Positions 1 to 62,644 of a stretch of 64,000 bases of DNA are shown here, one piece after another (the first letter of the stretch is position 1; every line of letters starts with the position of its first letter). The stretch comes from Cyanobacteriota bacterium (GTDB lineage: Bacteria; Cyanobacteriota; Cyanobacteriia; CACIAM-69d): contig JAKRSF010000001.1 of the NCBI GenBank assembly GCA_022402445.1, forward strand, positions 1-64,000, read 5' to 3'. Both the position numbers and the translations under genes were made by a program. The notes beneath the pieces are model-generated. The model made no database searches. It was not told the origin of the DNA and saw only the letters and a program-made list of their open reading frames with translations.

Positions 1-190
1 TTATTAAGGTAGCAAGATAAAACAAAACTGTCAACCATCTCCTGGAAAAAAGTTTGGGGGGACGGAAAGGGGGGTGTAGGAGGGGACTGGGGGGGTTGGC
101 TTGCCTAGGGGTTTGGGTGGGGGAGGGGTAATCTGGGGAGAGTTGGGGGGGTTGGGGCTCCGACCAGGTTATTTGGGTTGAGTCAGGCGC
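1..190. other. Intergenic leader of the first gene
   Basis: The first 50 bases are AT-rich, followed by a G-rich tract with many runs of four or more G. I see no gene, no clear promoter and no convincing ribosome binding site for the gene starting near 191. Confidence 0.4.
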
Positions 191-8137: not shown

Positions 8138-10011
8138 TCAAAGCGATCGGCCCAGCGGGAGGCGGGCAGCTCTAGCCAGATGGTGGCCTCCTCCGGGGGC
8201 AGGGCGGGGGCAAAGAAAAATCCCTGGCCATATTCACAGCCCAGCAACCGTAGATAATCCGCATGGGCGCGCTCTGAAACCCCCTCCCCCACCAGGGCCA
8301 TGTCGAGCGATCGCCCCACGGCAATCACCGCCGCAATAATGGCCGCCCGCCGCTCATCGCGGCCGATCGCCTCGACAAAGGAACGGTCAATTTTGAGGGT
8401 ATTGGCGGGGAATTGGTGGAGATAGTTCAAGGAGGAATAGCCCGTGCCGAAGTCGTCGATCCCCACCCGCAGGCCCAGATCGCGCAGTTGCTGCACCAGT
8501 TCCGCCGCCGAGGTGGGATCTTCAATGATGGTGCCTTCGGTGATTTCTAGTTTGATGGCGGCGGCGGGGCAGCCGGTTTCGGCGAGGGTGCGCTGGATGT
8601 CCGCCAGGAGGAATGGGTAGCTAAATTGCTTGGCGGATAGGTTCACGCTCACGAAGTCTAGGGGCAGGCTGAGGTCGAGCCACTGGCGGGCCTGTCGGCA
8701 GGCTTGCTGGAGGATTTGCAGGCCCAGGGCGACGATCGTGCCGGTTTCTTCGGCGCAGGGGATGAATTCCGCCGGGGAGACGTTGCCGCGATCGCGGTCC
8801 TGCCAGCGGGCGAGGGCTTCAAACCCCACCACGGCCCCGGTGCTGAGGCTAACAATGGGTTGATAGAAGGCGCGGATTTCGCCGCGATCCACGGCCCGCC
8901 GCAGATCCCGCTCCAGGTGCATCCGGGTGATGAGGCGATCGTGAACGGTGGGGTCAAAGGTTTGGAAGGAGCCTTTCCCCCTGGCCTTGGCCTGGTACAT
9001 GGCTGTATTGGCGTCCCGCAGGGGGTCGAGGGCGCTGTGGTAGTGGGGGCTGTCCCAGGCGATGCCGACGCAGGCGCTCAGGAATACCTCGAATCCTTCG
9101 ATTTGGAAGGGGGTTTGCAGATTTTCGAGGATGGCGACGGCGATCGCTTCGGCGGCAACGGTATCAAAGGGGATTGGGGCTAGGGATGACTGCCCCCGAT
9201 CCGCCCCACCGCCGACCCCGAGGGAAAATCCCTGGCGCGCCGGTTCCATCAACAGGTAAAACTCATCCTCCCCGGAGCGGCCCAAAAATGCCCCTTCCCC
9301 CTGGAAGCTGCGCAGCCGGTTGCCGATCGCGGCGATCAGGCGATCGCCAATGGCATAGCCCAGGGAGGAATTGATTGTGCGGAAGCGATCGCAGTCAATG
9401 CACAGCAGGGCAAAGGGGGAATCGGCGCAGCGGCGGGGGGACATCAGGGCCGTCTCCAGGGCCTGCAACAGGGCCGCGCGACTGGGTAGACCGGTCAGGG
9501 GATCCGTCAAAATGGACTGGCGCAGTTGGCGGGTGCGATCGCGCACCGTCTGCTCCAAATTGCTATTAAATCGCTCTAGCCGTTCATTGGCCGCCCGCAG
9601 CCGCGACACCAACTGTTCAATGCTTTGCTGCTGATGGCGCAGGCGCAGCAGGGACCGCAGCCGCGATCGCAGCTCCACCCCATCCACCGGCTTACGGATA
9701 AAATCCTCCGCCCCCGCCTGGAAACAGTCCGCCAAACTCTGCTTAGAACTCAGGGCCGTCACCGCCAGGATCGGAATCGCCGCCCAGCGATCGTGGGCCT
9801 TGATGCAGCGGCATACCTCAATCCCGCTGATGTCCGGCAGCATGATGTCGAGCAAAATCGCATCCGGCTGCACCGACGCCAGCAAATCCAGGGCCTGCTG
9901 TCCCGAGGACGCATAAAACAGCTCATAGCCCTCCGAAAACAGCAGAATTTCGATTACCTCAAAATTGTCCGGCTCATCGTCCACGACCAAGATGCGGTTC
10001 GACTCGTCCAT
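8134..10011 (-). CDS. Response regulator with GGDEF and EAL domains (c-di-GMP turnover)
   Basis: A 625-residue cytoplasmic protein. It has an N-terminal receiver (ILVVDDEP; phospho-acceptor Asp in ILLDIMLP), a coiled linker, a GGDEF domain (DPLTGLPSR, then SGEDEF in place of GGDEF) and a C-terminal EAL domain (VVGFEALARW, EITEGTI, DDFGTGYSSL). The EAL metal and catalytic motifs look intact, so c-di-GMP phosphodiesterase activity is likely. The signature loop SGEDEF is close to the canonical sequence, so cyclase activity cannot be excluded. I chose the ATG at 10011 because the receiver begins just after it; an upstream in-frame start at 10041 would add ten Pro/Phe-rich residues. The neighbouring giant hybrid kinase is a plausible partner, but nothing in the sequence proves this. 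Confidence 0.9.
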   Translation of the reverse strand: MDESNRILVVDDEPDNFEVIEILLFSEGYELFYASSGQQALDLLASVQPDAILLDIMLPDISGIEVCRCIKAHDRWAAIPILAVTALSSKQSLADCFQAGAEDFIRKPVDGVELRSRLRSLLRLRHQQQSIEQLVSRLRAANERLERFNSNLEQTVRDRTRQLRQSILTDPLTGLPSRAALLQALETALMSPRRCADSPFALLCIDCDRFRTINSSLGYAIGDRLIAAIGNRLRSFQGEGAFLGRSGEDEFYLLMEPARQGFSLGVGGGADRGQSSLAPIPFDTVAAEAIAVAILENLQTPFQIEGFEVFLSACVGIAWDSPHYHSALDPLRDANTAMYQAKARGKGSFQTFDPTVHDRLITRMHLERDLRRAVDRGEIRAFYQPIVSLSTGAVVGFEALARWQDRDRGNVSPAEFIPCAEETGTIVALGLQILQQACRQARQWLDLSLPLDFVSVNLSAKQFSYPFLLADIQRTLAETGCPAAAIKLEITEGTIIEDPTSAAELVQQLRDLGLRVGIDDFGTGYSSLNYLHQFPANTLKIDRSFVEAIGRDERRAAIIAAVIAVGRSLDMALVGEGVSERAHADYLRLLGCEYGQGFFFAPALPPEEATIWLELPASRWADRFD

Positions 10012-10393
10012 GGGGCAGCGAAAGGGGAAGGGAAACGGCAATCGTGAGGCAACATAGGGACGGATCGGCGCGATCGCGGCCCATCGACAAAACCTATGGG
10101 CACTACAACGGATTGTGATATTTAGCCCAAGTGGATTCTCCTAGGCTAACAGGCCGATCTTAAATCTAAGCCATTTAGGGGGATGATTCAGCCCCGTGGG
10201 GTCAGTCCTAGACGGTGGTGGCCACTAAAGAGTTTCCCGCCCTTTGTCCCCACCGGTTCTAGGGGAATCTTGAAGGATTTGATGGGGAGATCGAGGTGAT
10301 GATCCCGCGCTCCTTTTCTCTCCATCTAGGGCGCGATCGCCCCCAGACAATCCCCAGAAAATACTGAATGCACTGGTTAACGGTTCCTGTTTC
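10012..10393. other. Intergenic region between two minus-strand genes
   Basis: About 380 bases between the start of the REC-GGDEF-EAL gene and the stop of the TetR gene. It contains HIP1-type GCGATCGC sites but no credible coding frame, terminator or RNA gene that I can support. Confidence 0.4.
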
Positions 10394-13362: not shown

Positions 13363-14253
13363 ATGGAAACGGTTTTGAATCCGACGGTGGTGAGTGCGGC
13401 CCGCTCCTATGGCGGCTGGCAGCGGGTCTATGAACATCGGTCGGCGGTGCTGGACTGTTCGATGCGGTTTGGCCTCTATGAGCCGCCGGAGCTGGGAAAA
13501 CCCCGATGGGTGCTCTATTGGCTCAGTGGCCTGACCTGTACGGAGCAGAATTTCATTACGAAGTCTGGCTTCCAGCGGTGGGCGGCGGAGTTGGGGGCGA
13601 TCGTGGTGGCTCCGGACACGAGTCCCCGGGGCGATCGCGTGGCGGATGATCCCGATCGCTGGGATTTGGGCCAGGGGGCGGGGTTTTATGTCAATGCCAC
13701 GGAGGAGCCCTGGGCGCGCCACTATCGCATGTATGACTATGTGCTCCAGGATTTGCCGTCGGCGATCGCGTCGATCCTTCCCGGCGTTGGGGAGCTGCCC
13801 ACCGCGATCGCGGGCCATTCCATGGGGGGCCTGGGGGCGCTGGTGCTGGGTCTGCGGAATCCGGGGCGCTACCGCAGCATTTCCGCCTTTTCGCCGATTG
13901 TGAATCCCAGCCAGGTGCCCTGGGGCCAGGGGGCCTTTGGCCATTACCTCGGATCAAAGTACGACGCTTGGCGGGCCTATGATCCCACGGCCTTGATCCA
14001 GGACTATGGCCCTAGGACAGGCCGCGATCCCCAGGGGGAACCGCCAATCCTGATCGATCAGGGCACCGCCGATGGATTTTTGGGGCAGCAGCTTCAGCCG
14101 GAGGTCTTTAGGGATGCCTGTCAGGCGGTTGGCTACCCCGTGACCCTGCGCCTGCAGCCGGACTATGACCACAGCTACTACTTTGTCGCCACGTTCCTGG
14201 GGGATCATTTTGCCCACCACGCGGCCCACTGCACGGGTGATCGCGCCATTTAG
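13363..14253 (+). CDS. frmB: S-formylglutathione hydrolase
   Basis: A 296-residue serine hydrolase of the esterase D family that converts S-formylglutathione to formate and glutathione, the second step after FrmA. The nucleophile Ser is in GHSMGG (S153). The acid and base lie in IDQGTADGFL and DYDHSYYF near the C terminus. LYWLSGLTCTEQNF is the family oxyanion-hole region. The length is typical (about 280). It is preceded closely by frmA, suggesting one transcript. Its last roughly 146 bases overlap the 3' end of the convergent replication-protein gene, which is unusual. Confidence 0.95.
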   Translation: METVLNPTVVSAARSYGGWQRVYEHRSAVLDCSMRFGLYEPPELGKPRWVLYWLSGLTCTEQNFITKSGFQRWAAELGAIVVAPDTSPRGDRVADDPDRWDLGQGAGFYVNATEEPWARHYRMYDYVLQDLPSAIASILPGVGELPTAIAGHSMGGLGALVLGLRNPGRYRSISAFSPIVNPSQVPWGQGAFGHYLGSKYDAWRAYDPTALIQDYGPRTGRDPQGEPPILIDQGTADGFLGQQLQPEVFRDACQAVGYPVTLRLQPDYDHSYYFVATFLGDHFAHHAAHCTGDRAI

Positions 14254-17200
14254 CGATCGCGGGGACCGCAGATCCTTGCTGGGGCCAAGGGGGCCGGGGC
14301 GGATCACCTACCGGGGGGGTTAGGGTATTGAATTTCAGCGGGGTAGGTGATCCAGGGGCGGGGGGTGCCATCCGGAGGCCCTGGCGACGCTCAAGGATGT
14401 CCTGGAGCTGCTGCCAGCGATCGTGATCAAGCCGATAGACCCGCAGCTTTTCCCCCTGGCGGCGCTCCCAGCGGAACTGGCACCGCAGGCCCAATTGCCG
14501 CAGGAGCCGATGCCAAATGTCCACATCGTGCAGGTGGGGGCTTGGATCAAACCCGACGGCCAGCTTCACATCCCGCCGGTGGGCACGCACCCGGTCCACC
14601 AACCCCTTCAGGTCATATTTCGTCCATTCCCGCTCCGGATCCAAAAAGTCCCTGAGGCCCAGATGGTGGCGGGCTTGGCTGGCGAGGGACGCCTGACCAA
14701 AATCCCAGGGGCTCAGGGGATCACCCCGGTGGATTTGATGGGTGATGGTGCTGAGGTCGTGGCGGTGGGCGATCGCCCGGTCCAGCAACTCCTCAAGGGC
14801 CAAAATTTCCTGCCGCTGCTGCCCCTGGCGATCGGCGAGGACAAACTCCGCCGTGATGGCCTCCGGCTCAACCCCGTAGAACATCACCAGGTCATATTTG
14901 GCGATCGCCCACCGCTGGGCCTGGGTGAGGGAGCCCGCCTCCGCCCAATCCCGCAGATCCAGAACTGTCGGTAGGGGGGCCGTGGCGATCGCGGTAGCCT
15001 CCGCCCCCTTGAGGGTTGCCCGGGCCTGACGGATCAGATCCCGCACCTGGGGATTTTGGTCATGGCTACAGTCCACCGCCTCCAGATGGTTGCCCTCGTA
15101 GCGCAGCCGCACCCACAGGGCCGTCCGCAGATGGTCTAGGGCAAACCGCCGCGCCGCCATGGTTTCCGCCCAAAGCTGCACGTGGGGCGACTTCTCCCAG
15201 TCCACGCGATCGCCCAGATCCCCGATCCCCACGGCCATCAACTGCTGCTGAAGTAGGGCCGCCGTCACATCGGTGCGTCGCTTTAGGGTGGCGCGGATCT
15301 GTTCAACCGAGTTGCCCCAGGGGCGATCGCACCCCCCCTGGCCCCGCTCCCGACACCACACAATCCGAGGCACCGGCTGCCGCACCCGCCCGAGGGCCTG
15401 GGCCATGTCCCCATCGGTGATACTGACCCCATAGAACAGGCCAAACACCCGATCAAAGTAGGCGGACTCAATACTCACCCCCGTCGCCAAACTGGGGGTG
15501 GCGATGACCACCTGGGGCTGGAGGGCCGCCAAAACCGCATCGGGCGATCGCGCAAACTGCTGTTCCACCGGGCCGTTGCTCGTGTCCGCATTGATCAGCA
15601 GAACCGGCACTTGCAACTGTTCCAACTGCTCCAGGAGGCGATTGAGCTTTTGGCTATGGCGCTTCGAGTCCGTCGCCACAAAGAGTTTTTCCCCCGCCGC
15701 TGCGGCCGTCAGCAGCCGCGCGATCGCCGCCTGGTCGTGGGGGGCCATCAAAAACTCACCGCCATAGCCCAGGGGCGTCCCCCCATTGCGCACCAGAATC
15801 ACCTGGGCCTCGTCATCCGGTTCACTGCGCAGTTGCTGGAGGTAGTGGAGGGACGAATCATCTAGATCCGCATCCGCCACCAGCACCAGGGCCGCCCCCC
15901 GGATCAGGGTTTGGAACCGGGCCAGGATGGCCGAACGGCGATCGCGGCAGGTGGCCGACAGGAGCAAATGGCGCAGCACCTGCACCACCTCATCGAGCAC
16001 CAGGGTGCAGCCCCGGAATCGCTCGGGATCAAGGGCCAGCAGGGAATCTACACACAGGCCCACCCGCAGGGAATAGGCGGCCCCGGTGATCGCATCGGGG
16101 GGATGACCGTCGAGGGCAAAGCGATCTAGATCGCCGCGATAGGCCGCCCCCACGCGATCGCACAGGTTCCGCATCAGGGCGACCCGATGGCCCACCAGCG
16201 CCGTGGTGCCCCGGACCTCCAGCCAGCGTGCGAGACATTTGGTTTTGCCCGTCCCCTTTGGACTGGCGATCGCCACAATGGGCCGCCGCGATCGCGCCAC
16301 CTGGTCCCAAAGGCCCGTCCAGTCCTGATCCCCCAGATCGCCGCCGGGGATCAACCAATCGGCCCGATAGGTCAGCCGCCCCTGCAACCGCTGCCAGCAT
16401 CGCCACCCGTCGAGATCCATCGCCTCCCCAAAAATCCGATCCAGGGACATTGAGGCATCCCCCTCTGGCCTCTGATCAGCCCCCTGGGCCGCGATCGCCG
16501 CGATCGCATCATCAATCCCCTTGCCCAGCTCCATCGGCCAGGTCAGGACCGACACCCGGCACCCGCGATCCGTCAGGAGTGCCCCCAGCCCCGCCATGGC
16601 CGCCGCCACCCGCGATCGCGCCCTGGGATGGCTGTCCTGGTCAAAGGCCAACTGAATGGCCCTTCCCGCCGTCGCAAAGGGCCGCAAATCCTCGATCAGC
16701 TCCGGTCCCCCCTCCAGGGGTCTACCGAGGGCATCGCGCCGCCGGTGGCCCCCATGGACGCCATACAGGGCGATCGCACAGCGCCCCTGGGACAGCAGCG
16801 CCAATGCCTTCTTGCCCCCCTCCGTCAGCACCACCTCCACCTGGGGATGCGCCACCACCCAGGGCCAAAAGTCCGTGGGCTCGACCCCCTCTGGCACCGG
16901 CAGGCCCGCCCGCGCCGCGATCGCCCCCCAGATCCGCAGGGGCACCGCCGGGAAAAATCCCCGCGCCCCATTCCCCTTCGGCGTTTCGTACTTGTAGACC
17001 TTGCCCCCCATGCGATCGCGGCGCGGCGTCGAAAGCTTCAGTTGCCAGACGGTGCCATCCCCGTTTTCGAGGGCGATCGCCGCCAAATTCTGCCGCGCCG
17101 TCCGCCCAAACCGCACCACCCCCGACCAATTCAGGGCCTCATGGATCGGATAGGTGGCCTCATGGCCCCAGTCGCCCCCCGCATCCCCCAGCAGCCGCGT

Positions 17201-17335
17201 TGCCAGGTCGTACACATCCGGCGCGATCGCCGATCCCTCCACAAATTCCGCCCGGATCCGCTCCCCAAAGGCCCGAACATTAGCCAAGGCCCCCGTTTCG
17301 CCACCCGTAACCCGTCCCGTCCCTATGCACACCAT
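14108..17335 (-). CDS. Plasmid replication protein, CyRepA1 family (DUF3854 + superfamily helicase)
   Basis: A 1075-residue protein with the architecture of cyanobacterial CyRepA1 plasmid replication proteins. The N-terminal DUF3854/toprim-like domain has VVLTEGGKKAL (about 175) and an acidic IQLAFDQDSHP motif. A helicase-type ATPase follows, with Walker A (SPKGTGKT, about 362), Walker B (LVLDEVVQ) and late motifs (VIATPSLATGVS, QALGRVRQ). A basic, aromatic C-terminal region follows. ATG at 17335 is preferred: AAGGAG lies nine bases upstream, whereas the GTG at 17344 overlaps that site. The last roughly 49 codons run antisense through the end of frmB and look non-conserved (Pro/Gly/Ser-rich), as if an original stop was lost. 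The 1.2-kb region upstream has repeats that could be its origin or operator. It is probably from an integrated plasmid or an alternative replication origin. Confidence 0.85.
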   Translation of the reverse strand: MVCIGTGRVTGGETGALANVRAFGERIRAEFVEGSAIAPDVYDLATRLLGDAGGDWGHEATYPIHEALNWSGVVRFGRTARQNLAAIALENGDGTVWQLKLSTPRRDRMGGKVYKYETPKGNGARGFFPAVPLRIWGAIAARAGLPVPEGVEPTDFWPWVVAHPQVEVVLTEGGKKALALLSQGRCAIALYGVHGGHRRRDALGRPLEGGPELIEDLRPFATAGRAIQLAFDQDSHPRARSRVAAAMAGLGALLTDRGCRVSVLTWPMELGKGIDDAIAAIAAQGADQRPEGDASMSLDRIFGEAMDLDGWRCWQRLQGRLTYRADWLIPGGDLGDQDWTGLWDQVARSRRPIVAIASPKGTGKTKCLARWLEVRGTTALVGHRVALMRNLCDRVGAAYRGDLDRFALDGHPPDAITGAAYSLRVGLCVDSLLALDPERFRGCTLVLDEVVQVLRHLLLSATCRDRRSAILARFQTLIRGAALVLVADADLDDSSLHYLQQLRSEPDDEAQVILVRNGGTPLGYGGEFLMAPHDQAAIARLLTAAAAGEKLFVATDSKRHSQKLNRLLEQLEQLQVPVLLINADTSNGPVEQQFARSPDAVLAALQPQVVIATPSLATGVSIESAYFDRVFGLFYGVSITDGDMAQALGRVRQPVPRIVWCRERGQGGCDRPWGNSVEQIRATLKRRTDVTAALLQQQLMAVGIGDLGDRVDWEKSPHVQLWAETMAARRFALDHLRTALWVRLRYEGNHLEAVDCSHDQNPQVRDLIRQARATLKGAEATAIATAPLPTVLDLRDWAEAGSLTQAQRWAIAKYDLVMFYGVEPEAITAEFVLADRQGQQRQEILALEELLDRAIAHRHDLSTITHQIHRGDPLSPWDFGQASLASQARHHLGLRDFLDPEREWTKYDLKGLVDRVRAHRRDVKLAVGFDPSPHLHDVDIWHRLLRQLGLRCQFRWERRQGEKLRVYRLDHDRWQQLQDILERRQGLRMAPPAPGSPTPLKFNTLTPPVGDPPRPPWPQQGSAVPAIAKWRDHPCSGPRGGQNDPPGTWRQSSSCGHSPAAGAGSRGSQPPDRHP

Positions 17336-17753
17336 CCTCTGCACTCCTTAATTCCAGGGGTGCAACGGCCGCACGATTCCCTCACCAGCCTGATCTGGAG
17401 TGGGGGGAAAGCGCGATCGCCACCCTAAATCCGCAAATCCCGAAAACTTTCGCGAGCTCCCTACGAACCGCTGGCGAAGATCGGGGAATGGGTCAAAAAG
17501 CTTGAAATCCTTATAGCGAGGCCCTTTCAGGAATTGCCGCTACTTCGACTGATGACTCTGGGGGACATCAAATCCAGAAAAATCCCAGCAGGCCGATCAA
17601 ACGACTGGGCAAGCCACCGAGGGATGTGCTAATTTGAGTTCAAGTATTTTTTCACTTTTTTGGGTGTCCCCCCGGCATCGGTTCGCAGCCATGCTGGATC
17701 AAGGGGACCTTTTTTTTGCTTGCGCTGATTTTGGCGGGGCGCTCAACGCATCG

Positions 17754-17839
17754 GGAACAGAGCAAGACTTTTTGTTTTTGTATGTTGCTCTCTGCGCGGT
17801 TGCTGGGGGGCATGGTGACCCCATCGCCAACTCTGTTCC
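17754..17839. repeat. Nested inverted repeats with T-runs (possible RNA structure)
   Basis: GGAACAGAG (17754-17762) pairs with CTCTGTTCC (17831-17839). The overlapping arm AGAGCAA (17759-17765) can instead pair with TTGCTCT (17785-17791) around a T-rich loop. The two pairings are mutually exclusive. Upstream of a replication gene this could reflect a regulatory RNA, but there is no further evidence. Confidence 0.3.
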
Positions 17840-18247
17840 TGCGCCACCTCTGCTATGTGGATCTCAACTGGACCTTAATGTGGGTCCAATCGCGACGCCC
17901 CAGGGCAAAGGGGTGAAAGATAACCTCGGTTAAATCATTTGATAGCCAATCTACAACCCGAGCCCGCAACTGGGCAAGGGCAGAAACGGATCTGAGCGCG
18001 TGCGAACGGCCCCTTCACCCCGTTTCCCTCGAAAAATCCCTTCAATAGGCCCCGCGATCGCCGTTTTGGCCCCCGGACGCCCTCGGAAATTTCTTGCCCA
18101 TCACTATGCCACAGGGGTTCCGGGAAAACCACGATCGCCCAACTCGGAAATCATGATACAAAACGACCTTAGCCCTTGCCCCATCTAGCCTTCAGCCGCT
18201 GTTTCAGAAAAGGACCACAAAAAACTCACTGTACTTTTTTGCGATCG

Positions 18248-18265
18248 CTATCCCTGGATACTAGA
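18248..18265. repeat. 18-bp direct repeat, copy 1 (CTATCCCTGGATACTAGA)
   Basis: Identical 18-mers at 18248 and 18385, 137 bases apart. Each contains TATCC-CT-GGATA, an inverted repeat of two 5-bp arms, and both are followed by AAAAT-rich sequence. They look like iterons or binding sites of a dimeric protein controlling the CyRepA1 gene. Confidence 0.7.
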
Positions 18266-18384
18266 AAATCTGTAAGCATTGTATAGTCCTTTCCCCGTAA
18301 GGGTTTCAGCGACCGCCAAAAGCGAATTTGCACATTTCAATCACCCCCTCACAACTTTCTGAATTTTCCCCAAACGAAAAAAAC

Positions 18385-18402
18385 CTATCCCTGGATACTA
18401 GA
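18385..18402. repeat. 18-bp direct repeat, copy 2 (CTATCCCTGGATACTAGA)
   Basis: Second exact copy of the 18-mer at 18248. It lies 15 bases before a DnaA-box-like site and about 75 bases before the TTTGTATACAAA palindrome. Confidence 0.7.
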
Positions 18403-18416
18403 GAAAATTCGAGGGC

Positions 18417-18425
18417 TGTGGAAAA
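18417..18425 (-). promoter_or_regulatory. DnaA-box-like nonamer (TTTTCCACA on the minus strand)
   Basis: The plus strand reads TGTGGAAAA, so the minus strand is TTTTCCACA, matching the TTWTNCACA DnaA consensus. I found only one clear copy; ATTTGCACA near 18327 has one mismatch. A single 9-mer can occur by chance, but here it sits among other repeats upstream of a replication gene. Confidence 0.4.
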
Positions 18426-18475
18426 CTCCTGGAGCCCTTACCCAAAAAGCGCTTCAGCGATCAGAGATGGCCAAT

Positions 18476-18487
18476 TTTGTATACAAA
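18476..18487. promoter_or_regulatory. Perfect palindrome TTTGTATACAAA (candidate operator)
   Basis: A 12-bp perfect palindrome. Related half sites (ATACAAAA at 18156, ATTGTATA at 18278, TTTTTGTATG at 17776) occur in the same intergenic region, and TTGTACAA lies upstream of the RNB gene at 22429. A site for the adjacent XRE-domain protein is plausible but unproven. Confidence 0.4.
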
Positions 18488-18497
18488 GCAACTTTTA

Positions 18498-18517
18498 ACA
18501 ATTCTTTACGGAATTGT
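18498..18517. repeat. Inverted repeat ACAATTC-N6-GAATTGT
   Basis: Perfect 7-bp arms with a 6-base spacer, ten bases from the TTTGTATACAAA palindrome and about 60 bases from the stop of the XRE-domain gene. No T-tract follows, so it is more likely a binding site than a terminator. Confidence 0.4.
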
Positions 18518-18578
18518 CGATTAATGGATTTTGTGAGTGAGTGAATGAAAAGGCTTGTGGCGTAAGGAAATTAGGTTA

Positions 18579-20378
18579 TCAATCGAGCCCTAAAACTTCC
18601 CTTAGCTGAGCGGCGTACTCATCAGAAATGGACCGTCGTCCCCGTTCCCAGTGGCAGATCAGGCCGTGGCTGACCCCCATCCGTTCCGCCAGCTCCCGTT
18701 GATTCCACCCGAGGGCCTTGCGCTTTTGCACCACGTCTTCGCCGGAGATGCCCCGGACGCAGCGATCGCCGAGGCGGATCGGGGGGGGCATGTAGGACGG
18801 GAGGGGGGTGATCTCTTCCGGGGCTAGGGCTCGGCCCTTGGCGGAAGCGAGGGATTCGGGGGACGCGATCGCGCTGGGCATTGGATCCGGCGGCGCGATG
18901 CGGAGGGTCGCCTCTAGGAACTGCTGGAAATAATTTGGCCCCTTGCGCATTCGACTCTTGGGCCGCAAATTGCGCAGGTAGTTATCGCCGTAGCGAATCA
19001 CCCAGCCCAGATCCTCGAGCAGCAGCAGGGCATTATCCCAGCGGCTTTTCAGAGTATAGGCGGTTTTTGGGTTGTCCTCCGCCTGTTTGAGCAGGCTACC
19101 GGGCAGGATGAAAGGGTTTTTCAGCAGGCTCTTGACCCGGTAGAGGCGATCGCGCAGGTGACGATTTTCCAGGGTCAGGTGCAGGGCAAGGCGCAGGGCC
19201 AATTCATTGTGGTAGCCATCGATTTTGAGGATGCTCTGGGCCAAAAAACCAAATTGGTAGAGGGCTTGGCGGGCCTGGGAACCGGCGCGATTGAGAAAAT
19301 CCTGGGTCCAGAGACCGGGCTGCACGGTCAGGTCAAGCTGGGTCATGCGCTCGAAGTCCCCCGACAGGAGGTTGCGCTGGCCGTCAAAATCTAGCTTGAT
19401 GTTCCACAGGCGGCTGATATCGACGCTCACCTTGACCTTATGGCCCTGGGGTTGCCCTTCTTGCCAGGTGCCGCGCACCAGGAGGCTATCGAGGAGGCTG
19501 GCGTGCTGGGCGATGTGCTGGAATTTTTCCGGTAGGGTCAGATCCGTGCGCCGCTCCCAGCCCAGGAGGTTGATGACATCGGTGCCCCGCAGGGTGAAGC
19601 GGCCTTCCCAGGGGCGTTCGAGTTGGGTGGCGTAGGCGGCGAAGATGAATTGCAGTTTGGCGGTCTCGAAGCCGAATTTGTCGATGATTTGCTTGGCTTC
19701 GTTCCAGGGCAGCACTTGGATGTCGCCTGGACCGGTGATGTAGTGCTCGATGCGGTTGTAGGCGTCCTTGGGGCTGGTGTGGACGAACCGGGCGAGGCCG
19801 TTGGCGTCTTCCCAGGGGCTGTCGGGGACGACGGCGCGGGTGGCGCTGACCATGACGGCGGCGGTGGCGATCGCCGTGACATCTTCAGCGAAGAAGAAGG
19901 GGGGTTCCGGGGGCAAGAGGGCGTCGCGGACGATGTGGCCCAGTTGCTCGAAGTCCAGGTGATAGGTGCCCTGGGGGCTGGTGCGGTAGGGGTTGAGGAG
20001 GGCGTTGGCGGCGGCGATGAGGCTGTCGAAGTCGCTGCCGATGTCCGTGTCGGGGAGGGCGTTGGGGCCTTGCTGGCACTGGTGGATGGTTTGGCGCAGC
20101 AGGCGGAAATAGTGGCTGCGGATGGATTCGAGCTGTAGGGCGTTGGGGGCGCGATCGCCGGTGGCCTTGTCTTTAGTTGGTTTGCGGCCCCGGCGGCGGG
20201 GGGGATCGGCGGGGATTTTGGCGGCGAGCTGGTCGAGTTTTTCCAGTTCCTCGAGGGCGACCTTGAGGGCGGCGTATTTGATGCTGAGGGCGGCGGGGAC
20301 TTCGGCGTCGGAGAGTTCGTCGAGGGGGGCGGCGAAGAGGTGGGCGATGGCTTCGTGGTTGAGGGTTTGGGGCTGCAT
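18579..20378 (-). CDS. Large uncharacterised protein with C-terminal XRE helix-turn-helix
   Basis: A 599-residue protein. Only the last 55 or so residues are recognisable: a Cro/C1-type helix-turn-helix (WNQRELAERMGVSHGLICHWERGRRSISDEY). The remaining roughly 540 residues are mixed alpha/beta with basic patches (RRRGRKPTK near residue 64) and match no family I know. The middle (DISRLWNIKLDF, QALYQFGFLAQSILKIDG) might be a winged-helix or replication-initiator-like fold, but this is a guess. It lies ten bases downstream of the RNB ribonuclease gene, so the two are likely co-transcribed, and upstream of the CyRepA1 gene on the same strand. That context suggests a regulator or replication accessory factor of a plasmid-type module. 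ATG at 20378 is the only reasonable start. Confidence 0.75.
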   Translation of the reverse strand: MQPQTLNHEAIAHLFAAPLDELSDAEVPAALSIKYAALKVALEELEKLDQLAAKIPADPPRRRGRKPTKDKATGDRAPNALQLESIRSHYFRLLRQTIHQCQQGPNALPDTDIGSDFDSLIAAANALLNPYRTSPQGTYHLDFEQLGHIVRDALLPPEPPFFFAEDVTAIATAAVMVSATRAVVPDSPWEDANGLARFVHTSPKDAYNRIEHYITGPGDIQVLPWNEAKQIIDKFGFETAKLQFIFAAYATQLERPWEGRFTLRGTDVINLLGWERRTDLTLPEKFQHIAQHASLLDSLLVRGTWQEGQPQGHKVKVSVDISRLWNIKLDFDGQRNLLSGDFERMTQLDLTVQPGLWTQDFLNRAGSQARQALYQFGFLAQSILKIDGYHNELALRLALHLTLENRHLRDRLYRVKSLLKNPFILPGSLLKQAEDNPKTAYTLKSRWDNALLLLEDLGWVIRYGDNYLRNLRPKSRMRKGPNYFQQFLEATLRIAPPDPMPSAIASPESLASAKGRALAPEEITPLPSYMPPPIRLGDRCVRGISGEDVVQKRKALGWNQRELAERMGVSHGLICHWERGRRSISDEYAAQLREVLGLD

Positions 20379-20388
20379 GGGGACGGGG

Positions 20389-22368
20389 CTAGGGGGATGG
20401 GGCGATCGCGGCGAGGAGGGCTTGGGCGGCCTGTTGTTTGGCTAGTTTTTTGGTGCGGCCCTGGCCCCGGTATGGGTGGCCCTTCCAAACCAGGATGCAG
20501 CAAAATCCGCCCGCCGGGTCTGGGCTGTAGTGATCGGGGGGCATGGGCTGGCCGGTCTGCTGGCAGTGCTGGTTGAGTTGGCCGATGTAGTTGCTGCTGG
20601 GTTCGGGGGCGATCGCGGGGCTGGCGCTGGGGCTTGGGGTGGGGGCGGTTTGGCGATCGGTGGCGTCACGGGTGGTACCGGCGAGGCCCGCTTGCCAGAA
20701 GGCGATCGCGGCGCGGGCGCGGGCCTGTTTTTTGTTGGTGCTGTGGCAGGGGTGGGGGTGGGTGCGGCCATTGACGATCGCCCAGGCGGTCCAGTGGGTG
20801 CCTGCGCCGCTGACTTCAAATTCCACGGTCCAGTGCAGGCGATGGCAGGCGATGTCGAGGATGGAGATGGCCAGGGAGGGGGTCTGTTGGAGTTGCCGCA
20901 GGGCCGCCTGGGGGAGGGGGTGTTGGCCGTCCGTGAGGCCGTGGATCAGCAGCCGCCCCAGGTCGTCGGTGGAGAGGCGATCGAGGCGTTTGAGGGCCAG
21001 GTCGGTGATTTGGTCGAGGCGATCGGTGTTGATGGCGTGTTCGAGGTGTTGGGAGAATTGGTCGTCGTCCAGTTGGGCGAGGCGGTGCTGTTGGTCGAGG
21101 TTGCGATCGCGCACCGCATGGCGTTTTTGCCGCTGGGCCAGGTCGATGCGATCGCGGGCGGCCTCGAGCCAGGTGTTGATGCGCTCAGCCAACTCTTCCA
21201 GTTCCCCTTGGCTGTAAGGGGGATCGCTGCCATCGGCGATCGCGTGGAGCACCCGATGGTTAATAAAATCCGCCAGCCGCCGCAGGGGGGAGGTGCTGTG
21301 GCAGTAGGCCGGGGCCGCGAGGGCCAGGTGACCGATCGGTTCGGTGCCGTAGCGGGCGCGATCGAATTGGCAGGCGAGTTTCCGGCGCAGGGCGGTGCGC
21401 TGATCGGCGGGCATGTCCGCTAGGGCCGCCAGGAGCGCTTGGGGGCCGCGATCGCTCCAGTCCTCATCGCCCCAGTCCACCGCGATCGCCGGATCCAGGT
21501 CATTGCGCCAATCGAGGGGCTGGGCCGGGGTGGGAGAATCGCCGGTGGGGTCCGGGGCGATCGCCCGAGTGCCCTGGTTGCGGTAGAGGGCCGGATAGCC
21601 CGAGGAGCGGAGGATTTGGGCCATGATCGTATTGGCCAGCACCGCATATTCCGCCACCAGAACCTGCGATCGCAGGGGGGTGCCCAGGACCGGTCGCCCA
21701 TCCTCATCGAAGTAGGTATCGCCAATGGTGGACGCCCCCAAGGCCCCCAGGGTTTGGCGGTGGCGGGCGAGTTTTTTGGCCCAGGTTTGCAGGTAGCTGA
21801 GCTGGAGATGGTGGGGATCATCCGGCTGATCGAGGATGGCATCCGCCTGGTCGTAGCTGAGTTTGCGGATGCTGCAAAAGCGCACAAATTGCCAGTGGTA
21901 GTCCTGGAGGAGGCCCGTGGCGTCGAGGTCGAGGCGCAGTTCCAGGGCGGGCCGCATTTGCCCCTCGCGCAGGGAGAGGCGATCGCCCGTGAGCAGTTCC
22001 GGCAGCATGGGTTCGACCCGCCGGGGTAGATAGAGGGTAGCGATCCGTTCAATGGCCGCCTGATCGAGGAGCGAACCGGGGGCGATCGCGGCGGTGGGGT
22101 CGGCGATGTAGACATAGACCGTTGCTCCCACGGTGGCCCCAGGGGCGATCGCATCGTCCGCCACCTCGATGCGCAGGGCGTCATCTAAATCTTCGGAATT
22201 GGGACCATCAATGGTGAGACCCCAACGGGGGGGCCGCCGTTCGAGGAGGGCGTCCGTGTTGAGGGCTTCGGCGGCGGCGATCGCGGCGCGGGAAAAGGTG
22301 CGGCGTTTTTGGGGAGAGTTGGGGCCGGACCGGCTGGACTCGGGCCGTTGGCTTCCTGCGAGTTCCAT
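20389..22368 (-). CDS. RNB-domain exoribonuclease with two C-terminal dsRNA-binding motifs
   Basis: A 659-residue protein. The RNB (RNase II/R) catalytic motif NSEDLDDAL appears near residue 57, with acidic residues placed as in the DxxxxxDxDD active site, so 3'-to-5' hydrolytic exoribonuclease activity is expected. The domain continues through typical RNB features (YLPRRVEPMLPELLTG; the late HSTSPLRRLADFINHR motif). Unlike RNase II/R, there is almost no N-terminal cold-shock region and no S1 domain. Instead two dsRBM-like units follow: one around residues 525-575 (WTVEFEVSG, STNKKQARARAAIAF) and a fuller one at the C terminus (NYIGQLNQHCQQ, TKKLAKQQAAQALL). ATG at 22368 has GGAG upstream. 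A palindrome TTGTACAA lies 60 bases upstream. It is the first gene of a likely operon with the XRE-domain gene. Processing of structured RNA, perhaps a replication-control RNA, is inference. Confidence 0.82.
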   Translation of the reverse strand: MELAGSQRPESSRSGPNSPQKRRTFSRAAIAAAEALNTDALLERRPPRWGLTIDGPNSEDLDDALRIEVADDAIAPGATVGATVYVYIADPTAAIAPGSLLDQAAIERIATLYLPRRVEPMLPELLTGDRLSLREGQMRPALELRLDLDATGLLQDYHWQFVRFCSIRKLSYDQADAILDQPDDPHHLQLSYLQTWAKKLARHRQTLGALGASTIGDTYFDEDGRPVLGTPLRSQVLVAEYAVLANTIMAQILRSSGYPALYRNQGTRAIAPDPTGDSPTPAQPLDWRNDLDPAIAVDWGDEDWSDRGPQALLAALADMPADQRTALRRKLACQFDRARYGTEPIGHLALAAPAYCHSTSPLRRLADFINHRVLHAIADGSDPPYSQGELEELAERINTWLEAARDRIDLAQRQKRHAVRDRNLDQQHRLAQLDDDQFSQHLEHAINTDRLDQITDLALKRLDRLSTDDLGRLLIHGLTDGQHPLPQAALRQLQQTPSLAISILDIACHRLHWTVEFEVSGAGTHWTAWAIVNGRTHPHPCHSTNKKQARARAAIAFWQAGLAGTTRDATDRQTAPTPSPSASPAIAPEPSSNYIGQLNQHCQQTGQPMPPDHYSPDPAGGFCCILVWKGHPYRGQGRTKKLAKQQAAQALLAAIAPSP

Positions 22369-61288: not shown

Positions 61289-62644
61289 ATGTCGAGCCTA
61301 TTTCCGGAATTCGACAATCCCCCAGTCACCGCCTCCGTCTTCCGTCCCCTAGCCGATCGCCTGCGCCCGATCGCGTTGGCAGAGGTGGCTGGCCAGGAGC
61401 ATCTAACCGCGCCGGGGATGCCGCTTCAGCGCATGGTCGCCAGCGGCCAGTTCGCCTCAACGATTCTTTGGGGACCGCCGGGGTGTGGAAAAACGACCCT
61501 GGCTCGCATCGTCGCGCAGCAGTCAGGGCTGCATTTCGAGCAACTCTCGGCGATCTTTGCCGGTGTCAAGGATCTGAAAGCCGTGTTTCAGGCCGCGCGT
61601 GATCGTCGTCGAACCGGCGGTCAAACGCTGCTGTTCGTCGATGAAATCCACCGGTTTATGAAATCCCAGCAGGATGCATTTTTGCCGGTGCTGGAAGATG
61701 GGACGATCGTGCTGATCGGCGCAACAACCGAAAATCCGTCATTTGAACTAAACGCTGCGCTTCTGTCGCGCTGTCAGGTGTTGGTGCTGAAGCGGTTGAG
61801 CGAGGACGCGATCGAAGCCCTGTTGCAACGGGCAGAGGCGGCTGAAGAGAAACCGCTACCGCTGAGCGATCGGGCGCGCGAGATTCTCACAACCCTAGCG
61901 GATGGGGATGGGCGTTACGCGCTGTCGATGGCGGAGCAGGTCTTTGCGCAGTCCGAAACGCTAGATGCAAGGGATTTGATGGCGATCGCGCAGCGCCGCG
62001 CACCGCTCTACGATCGTCAAGGTGACGCCCACTACAACCTGATTTCCGCGCTGCATAAGTCCGTGCGGGGAAGCGACCCGGATGCGGCCCTGTACTGGTT
62101 TTCTCGAATGTTGGAAGGTGGCGAAGATCCGCGCTTCATCGCACGGCGCATGGTGCGGATGGCGTCAGAAGATATCGGCTTGGCGGACCCGCAGGCGTTG
62201 CCGCAGTGCGTTGCTGCCTGGGAGGCATATGAACGGTTGGGCAGCCCGGAAGGGGATTTAGTGTTGGCGCAAGCGCTGGTGTATTTGGCAACGGCACCGA
62301 AATCAACGGCGGTGTACTCGGCGTTTAATCGGGCACGCCAGAAAGCCAAAGAAACGGGGTCTTTGATGCCGCCAAAGTGCATTTTGAACGCGCCGACGCA
62401 ACTGATGAAGCGCGAGGGGTATGGAGGGGGATATGTCTACGATCCGGATACGCCGGAGAGTTTTTCAGGGCAGAACTATTTTCCGGAGGAGACGGGGCGG
62501 CTGTCGTTCTACGCGCCGGTGCGGCGGGGGTTCGAGCGCGAAATTGAGAAGCGGTTAGTTTACTGGGCGAAGTTGCGGGCTCGGAAACATGCGAAGCCTG
62601 CCGACACGACCTCGGACGCGATCGCGGAGGACAGCGGCGAGTAA
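61289..62644 (+). CDS. rarA: Replication-associated recombination protein A (clamp-loader-like AAA ATPase)
   Basis: A 451-residue AAA+ ATPase of the RarA/MgsA/WRNIP1 family that acts at stalled replication forks. It has Walker A GPPGCGKTT (62-70), Walker B FVDEIHRF, sensor 1 GATTENPSFELN, arginine-finger region LLSRCQVLVL and the C-terminal tetramerisation and MgsA domain (HYNLISALHKSVRGSDPDAALYW; PPKCILNAPTQLMKREGYG; FSGQNYFP; RRGFEREIEKRL). Phrases such as RPLADRLRP, SVRGSDPDAALYW and RGFEREI resemble alphaproteobacterial RarA more than the usual cyanobacterial form, as far as I can recall. Wording of codons also differs slightly from neighbours (fewer GGCC-rich codons). ATG at 61289 follows CGGGAG. 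Confidence 0.92.
   Translation: MSSLFPEFDNPPVTASVFRPLADRLRPIALAEVAGQEHLTAPGMPLQRMVASGQFASTILWGPPGCGKTTLARIVAQQSGLHFEQLSAIFAGVKDLKAVFQAARDRRRTGGQTLLFVDEIHRFMKSQQDAFLPVLEDGTIVLIGATTENPSFELNAALLSRCQVLVLKRLSEDAIEALLQRAEAAEEKPLPLSDRAREILTTLADGDGRYALSMAEQVFAQSETLDARDLMAIAQRRAPLYDRQGDAHYNLISALHKSVRGSDPDAALYWFSRMLEGGEDPRFIARRMVRMASEDIGLADPQALPQCVAAWEAYERLGSPEGDLVLAQALVYLATAPKSTAVYSAFNRARQKAKETGSLMPPKCILNAPTQLMKREGYGGGYVYDPDTPESFSGQNYFPEETGRLSFYAPVRRGFEREIEKRLVYWAKLRARKHAKPADTTSDAIAEDSGE

What the first reader, a model, noticed from the sequence alone, without database searches (positions are those of the whole stretch)
14108..22368. Plasmid-type replication module in a chromosomal context: RNB-dsRBM nuclease, XRE-domain giant and CyRepA1
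Three minus-strand genes (an RNB exoribonuclease with two dsRNA-binding motifs, a 599-residue XRE-tailed protein ten bases downstream, and a CyRepA1 replication protein) enclose a repeat-rich 1.2-kb region. On either side are formaldehyde detoxification and ordinary chromosomal genes. An integrated replicon, or an alternative chromosomal origin, is likely. A dsRNA-directed exonuclease next to a replication gene suggests RNA-based copy control, which to my knowledge is not described for CyRepA-type replicons.
Basis: partly seen in the sequence, partly recalled or inferred. Interest (0 to 1): 0.7.

Follow-up and report, generated by a model that had tools for sequence, protein, structure and literature searches.

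The report
Plasmid-type replication origin beside genes
A stretch of a cyanobacterial genome that looks chromosomal carries the core of a plasmid copying system: a DNA-binding initiator gene, short repeats it probably binds, and a known plasmid helicase gene (CyRepA1), a combination that recurs on many cyanobacterial plasmids and could be a spare or backup origin of replication.

Summary
The three genes are real (CyRepA1 344 bits; 599-aa XRE-tailed protein; RNB nuclease with dsRNA-binding tail). "Repeat-rich" is overstated, but the gap holds two 17-bp repeats (18249-18265, 18386-18402) that matter. Homologues of the XRE protein lie on 45-46 cyanobacterial plasmids. In most loci read, a large Rep-type gene follows on the same strand (CyRepA1, PriCT_2/CyRepX-like, DUF3987 or an unnamed 530-660-aa protein), and in 20 of 34 loci tandem 20-24-bp iterons fill the gap. 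A matrix built from seven other loci finds exactly the window's two repeats as its two best sites. So 14108-20378 is an iteron replicon core: inferred XRE initiator, origin, CyRepA1 helicase-primase. The RNB gene is not a fixed member: a same-family genome has it among housekeeping genes, yet relatives often lie near par/rep genes (7/20 neighbourhoods versus 1/30 controls). RNA copy control of a CyRepA replicon is already published (pSYSA), and chromosomal CyRepA is common (80 of 145 genomes), so those novelty claims fall. The contig is only 65.9 kb; its content looks chromosomal, but a large plasmid is not excluded. The XRE-iteron pairing with several Rep families appears undescribed. Whether the window's sparse origin still fires is unknown.

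The parts
18579..20378 (-). 599-aa XRE-tailed protein, inferred iteron-binding replication initiator (probable tandem winged-helix core about aa 205-498, Cro/C1-type HTH 551-598)
   Evidence: HTH_3; homologues on 45-46 cyanobacterial plasmids; weak AlphaFold model whose best full-length match is RctB domains 2-3
18386..18402 (-). iteron copy nearest the XRE gene (TATCCCTGGATACTAGA on +; TCTAGTATCC core on the gene strand)
   Evidence: exact repeat; second-best hit in the window of a matrix from other loci, 16.4 bits
18249..18265 (-). second iteron copy
   Evidence: best hit of the same matrix, 24.9 bits; next non-iteron site 7.9 bits
18417..18425 (-). perfect TTTTCCACA, a DnaA-box-like site beside the iteron
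   Evidence: one of 3 exact copies in the window, not conserved in most other loci, so weak
18445..18578 (.). AT-richest part of the gap (GC 0.36-0.38), candidate unwinding element
   Evidence: composition; inference
17345..18578 (.). intergenic region = candidate origin of replication
   Evidence: same place as the tandem iterons on plasmids
14108..17344 (-). CyRepA1-family replication protein (DUF3854 Toprim-like domain + helicase)
   Evidence: NF042913, 344 bits; PF12965, 127 bits; 34-39% identity over about 84-93% of its length with many plasmid copies
20389..22368 (-). RNB exoribonuclease with C-terminal dsRBM; probably co-transcribed with the XRE gene but not a conserved member of the replicon
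   Evidence: PF00773 and PF00035; catalytic Asp cluster and SPLRR motif conserved; distribution

Best explanation
14108-20378 is the core of an iteron-type plasmid replicon, now resident in what is most likely the chromosome (or a large secondary replicon). Inferred mechanism: the XRE-tailed protein binds the TCTAGTATCC iterons in the gap between the two genes and opens the neighbouring AT-rich DNA; CyRepA1, a primase-helicase, is then loaded there and starts theta-type synthesis. Shown: the genes, the shared iteron, and its recurrent place between an XRE gene and a Rep gene on many plasmids. Inferred: that the XRE protein binds the iteron, that it recruits CyRepA1, and that the origin ever fires here. 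With two copies 137 bp apart instead of a tandem array, the window's origin may be weak, silent or domesticated. The RNB gene upstream is an accessory, plausibly co-expressed.
For: CyRepA1 identity, a family proven to be a Rep (PMC9978351). XRE homologues on 45-46 plasmids. XRE directly upstream of CyRepA1 in eight loci: L004, L118, L139, L141, L144, L148, L191 and L195. Tandem 20-24-bp repeats downstream of the XRE gene in 20 of 34 other loci, each beating 100 of 100 shuffles, almost absent upstream of it. A matrix from seven other loci, window excluded, has its two best window sites at the two repeats: 24.9 and 16.4 bits, next 7.9. Full-length XRE model: best matches are two RctB domain 2-3 entries, Z 11.3 and 10.4 over 223-227 residues; truncated model: RepE first, but Z only 3.6. 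HIP1 density and composition match the rest of the genome, so the module is probably long resident.
Against: Only two dispersed iterons; the tandem test fails for the window (p = 0.95). No par, relaxase or integrase gene found nearby. No strong skew minimum at the gap. The XRE models are poor (pLDDT 50 and 63), no Foldseek match passes E 0.001, and the conserved core has no convincing sequence match to solved Rep proteins or Pfam Rep families. Some loci pair the XRE gene with unrelated neighbours and no iterons (L105, L109, L110). Contig only 65.9 kb.
Confidence: 0.75

Rival explanations
1. Decayed relic: an integrated plasmid whose origin no longer works. The proteins are kept for another role, such as repair priming or regulation, or are drifting. 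(A variant of the best explanation: same anatomy, no activity.)
For: Two dispersed iterons instead of 3-7 in tandem; no partition genes nearby; the same-family genomes lack the XRE gene; CyRepA homologues of unknown function are common on chromosomes (PMC10899382).
Against: Both genes are full length without stops, and both iteron cores are identical over 17 bp, which neutral decay would not keep for long.
Confidence: 0.35
2. The contig belongs to a large plasmid or chromid, so the module is simply that replicon's ordinary origin.
For: The contig is 65.9 kb, not joined to a chromosome contig, and the window has no tRNA gene; no other CyRepA1 over the cut-off and no other XRE gene in the genome.
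Against: Complete urt operon plus porin in the order seen on a 209-kb contig of a same-family genome; composition indistinguishable from the long contigs; no par or transfer genes among the proteins scanned; its first 55 bases match the end of 163-kb contig C12 inverted, as expected for two sides of an insertion sequence.
Confidence: 0.2
3. The XRE protein is only a repressor of the downstream rep gene; the repeats are its operators, and CyRepA1 alone is the initiator.
For: The C-terminal HTH is Cro/C1-like; CyRepA1 on pSYSA works with a different upstream region, and on the Tolypothrix plasmid L009 no XRE gene is annotated within 8 kb.
Against: Most of the conserved part is the 300-residue core, not the HTH. 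The family stays with the same kind of repeat while the downstream Rep changes, which fits an origin-specificity factor better. Operators rarely come as 3-7 tandem 22-bp repeats (general knowledge).
Confidence: 0.3
4. RNB-dsRBM, XRE and CyRepA1 form one RNA-controlled copy-number operon.
For: 10-bp spacing between RNB and XRE; RNB-dsRBM genes lie near par/rep-type genes in 7 of 20 neighbourhoods against 1 of 30 controls, p = 0.005 and on nine Acaryochloris plasmid records.
Against: No XRE gene in any of the 20 RNB neighbourhoods; the nearest relative is chromosomal without Rep; no conserved RNA in the gap.
Confidence: 0.08

Closest known systems
CyRepA1 replicon of pSYSA (Synechocystis PCC 6803; PMC9978351)
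   Same: CyRepA1 with DUF3854 and helicase domains; regulatory/origin region directly upstream of the rep gene
   Different: pSYSA uses ssr7036 mRNA, antisense RNA and RNase E there; the window has an XRE gene and iterons instead
XRE-CyRepA1 plasmids found here (e.g. Calothrix NIES-4105 plasmid3, Calothrix PCC 7716 p4, Chondrocystis NIES-4102 plasmid1, pSYN7502.01, pGM3709_04)
   Same: gene order XRE, gap, CyRepA1 on one strand; the iteron core is nearly the same as on Calothrix NIES-4105 plasmid3
   Different: most carry 3 or more tandem iterons at about 22 bp (no clear array in pSYN7502.01) and they are plasmids
Iteron replicons of the RepE/RctB type (F plasmid, Vibrio chromosome II)
   Same: initiator gene beside iterons and an AT-rich stretch; weak structural similarity of the XRE core to RctB and RepE
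   Different: no sequence similarity detected; here a dedicated primase-helicase follows the origin, and an XRE HTH is fused to the initiator
CyRepX of pSYSX (PMC10899382)
   Same: distant relatives of the pSYSX protein (PriCT_2 proteins) take the Rep position in some XRE-iteron loci
   Different: the window has CyRepA1

Membership tests
CyRepA1 (NF042913) | score over the curated cut-off of 200 bits | tested here: met
   344 bits over 355-954
CyRepA1 (NF042913) | N-terminal DUF3854 domain | tested here: met
   PF12965, 6.3e-37, residues 159-283
CyRepA1 (NF042913) | supports autonomous replication | not testable with these tools
   needs a replication assay
Iteron replicon | initiator gene adjacent to directly repeated sites of about 20 bp | tested here: met
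   two copies, same orientation, matching iterons of seven other loci
Iteron replicon | tandem array of three or more iterons | tested here: not met
   only two, 137 bp apart; so the window is described as an iteron replicon core, not as a typical working iteron origin
Iteron replicon | initiator binds the iterons | not testable with these tools
   needs a binding assay
Tandem winged-helix initiators (RepE/RctB/Rep_3) | recognisable sequence family | tested here: inconclusive
   no Pfam Rep match in any of 15 members and no convincing PDB sequence match for the core
Tandem winged-helix initiators (RepE/RctB/Rep_3) | two winged-helix domains | tested here: inconclusive
   weak model; RctB Z 11.3 for the full length, RepE Z 3.6 for the truncated core
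pSYSA-type RNA copy control | overlapping sense/antisense RNAs upstream of the rep gene | tested here: inconclusive
   no Rfam match, no promoter-like or terminator-like site by simple scans; transcripts not available

The most novel reading that the evidence does not exclude
A plasmid-derived XRE-iteron-CyRepA1 origin has become a working second or DnaA-independent chromosomal origin in this cyanobacterium. More generally, XRE-tailed initiators with 22-bp iterons are an undescribed origin-specificity system that is combined with at least four different Rep families across cyanobacteria.
Probability: 0.3. Interest if true: 0.8.

Novelty: new variant of a known kind. Interest (0 to 1): 0.55.

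Why it matters
Several cyanobacteria replicate their chromosomes without DnaA, from multiple unknown origins (PMC7198777), and in a Synechococcus elongatus dnaA mutant an integrated plasmid's origin took over the chromosome (same paper). CyRepA genes sit on the chromosomes of 80 of 145 cyanobacteria with unknown function (PMC10899382). A defined iteron and a candidate initiator turn 'where could such origins be?' into a sequence search and a simple binding assay. They also supply a new, modular replicon type for vectors.

Tried and rejected
Three-gene module: rejected for RNB. RNA-based control: no Rfam family, no promoter-like or terminator-like site, and no alignable non-coding conservation of the gap beyond the iteron. 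Tandem-array test on the window: failed. GC skew as origin evidence: only a shallow local trough near 18 kb, confounded by gene orientation. Empty-site comparison: the same-family genomes are too rearranged to show an unoccupied site. Relatives in viral contigs: none. Named genome scan: one relative. Structure of the XRE core: weak models; the truncated model did not reproduce the RctB match. Circular contig: no terminal overlap. DnaA box as a shared feature: rejected, present in few of the other gaps.

Full report
Observation. All three genes are present where stated: CyRepA1 at 14108-17344, a 599-residue protein with a C-terminal Cro/C1-type HTH at 18579-20378, and an RNB nuclease with a dsRNA-binding C terminus at 20389-22368, all on the minus strand. 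The gap 17345-18578 is AT-rich but not generally repeat-rich. It holds one significant repeat, TATCCCTGGATACTAGA, twice, 137 bp apart (0.01 expected in 64 kb at up to three mismatches).

Context. The window is nearly the whole of a 65,920-bp contig in a 13-contig, 4.08-Mb assembly. The contig ends inside a devA-type gene and does not close on itself. Its first 55 bases recur inverted at the end of contig C12, as two sides of an insertion sequence would. It carries a complete urt operon and porin in the order of a same-family genome and has the composition of the rest of the genome. I take it as probably chromosomal, but a large plasmid is not excluded. DnaA is encoded on C11. CyRepA1 over the cut-off and the XRE gene are single copy. 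Five same-family genomes lack the XRE gene.

The XRE gene marks a replicon class. tblastn finds relatives on 45-46 plasmid records, all shown ones cyanobacterial. I read the surroundings on plasmids and in other genomes. In most of the plasmid loci a large gene follows on the same strand. It is CyRepA1 in L004, L118, L139, L141, L144, L148, L191 and L195; a PriCT_2 protein or its relative in L005, L006, L103 and more weakly L104 and L115, distantly related to a pSYSX protein that is probably CyRepX1 (the record does not show the locus tag slr6031, so this is an inference); a DUF3987 protein in L192 and L193; or an unnamed 530-660-residue protein in L143, L145, L146, L149 and L196. Other XRE loci have unrelated neighbours and no iterons (L105, L109, L110), so the pairing is common, not universal.

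Iterons. In the gap after the XRE gene, 20 of 34 loci hold repeats with a 20-24-bp period that beat all 100 Markov shuffles; the region upstream of the XRE gene gives a comparable value in one locus only (for the sequences). The loci are not all independent, since some are close relatives. In L004, L006, L104, L115, L138, L143 and L148 the repeat has the core TCTAGNAT. A weight matrix from these seven, without the window, scores the window's two repeats 24.9 and 16.4 bits, both on the strand of the XRE gene; the next site in 64 kb scores 7.9. Their distance from the XRE stop codon (about 180 and 310 bp) lies within the range of the plasmid arrays. This is the strongest evidence in the report.

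The initiator. The conserved part of the XRE protein is a 300-residue core before the HTH. No Pfam Rep family or solved structure convincingly matches it by sequence. AlphaFold from two sequences gives poor models (pLDDT 49.8 and 62.6). The full-length model's best matches in VIA-align are two entries of RctB domains 2-3 (Z 11.3 and 10.4), the iteron initiator of Vibrio chromosome II; the truncated model gives RepE first but only at Z 3.6, and Foldseek has no significant match. I treat the winged-helix initiator as likely, not shown.

The RNB gene. The catalytic aspartates and the SPLRR motif are intact. A 42%-identical relative in a same-family genome sits between dapA, RNase J, nadA and aroB (gene names there are read from the translated sequences). 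In 291 genomes of the class, 17 have the family. Of 20 neighbourhoods, 7 hold ParA, ParB, CyRepA1-like or the unnamed Rep-position protein within about 10 kb, against 1 of 30 mostly own-genome control stretches (Fisher p = 0.005; the controls are not matched for genome). Nine Acaryochloris plasmid records carry relatives. The gene is plasmid-associated but is not tied to the XRE-CyRepA1 core.

Literature. CyRepA homologues are on chromosomes in 80 of 145 cyanobacteria (PMC10899382). The word iteron does not occur in the two CyRepA papers and the CyRepX paper (counts), and searches for iterons or XRE proteins with cyanobacterial plasmids gave nothing on this arrangement. The library holds open-licence papers only, so novelty is provisional. 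An integrated plasmid origin can take over a cyanobacterial chromosome (PMC7198777).

Verdict. The window carries the core of an iteron-type plasmid replicon with CyRepA1 as helicase-primase. Whether the origin is active is open and directly testable.

Noticed in passing
L143:9387-11006, L145:8652-10352, L146:9164-10738, L149:9311-11140, L196:7388-9061: An unnamed 530-660-residue protein (motif like FLALFPHRYDYIWAEHP in related loci) occupies the Rep position after XRE gene and iterons on several plasmids; the one member scanned has no Pfam or NCBIfam match. It may be a further cyanobacterial Rep family.
   Followed up: partly
window 1-55: The first 55 bases of the contig recur inverted at the end of contig C12, with a related copy at C2:39-72, probably the end of an insertion sequence.
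   Followed up: partly
window 14108-14253: The CyRepA1 ORF as listed overlaps the convergent S-formylglutathione hydrolase gene by 146 bp at their 3' ends.
   Followed up: no
window 61289-62644: A stand-alone 451-aa RarA-like ATPase scores well below the NCBIfam cut-offs of the family it best matches.
   Followed up: no
L231:3298-6474 and 8155-10023: In another genome an RNB-dsRBM gene and a CyRepA1 gene (40% identity to the window's) lie divergently 1.7 kb apart.
   Followed up: no
L171:16760-18652: Contig C3 of the window's genome carries a ParA-ParB pair 44-45% identical to that beside an XRE-type plasmid replicon (L005); whether it is chromosomal was not tested.
   Followed up: no
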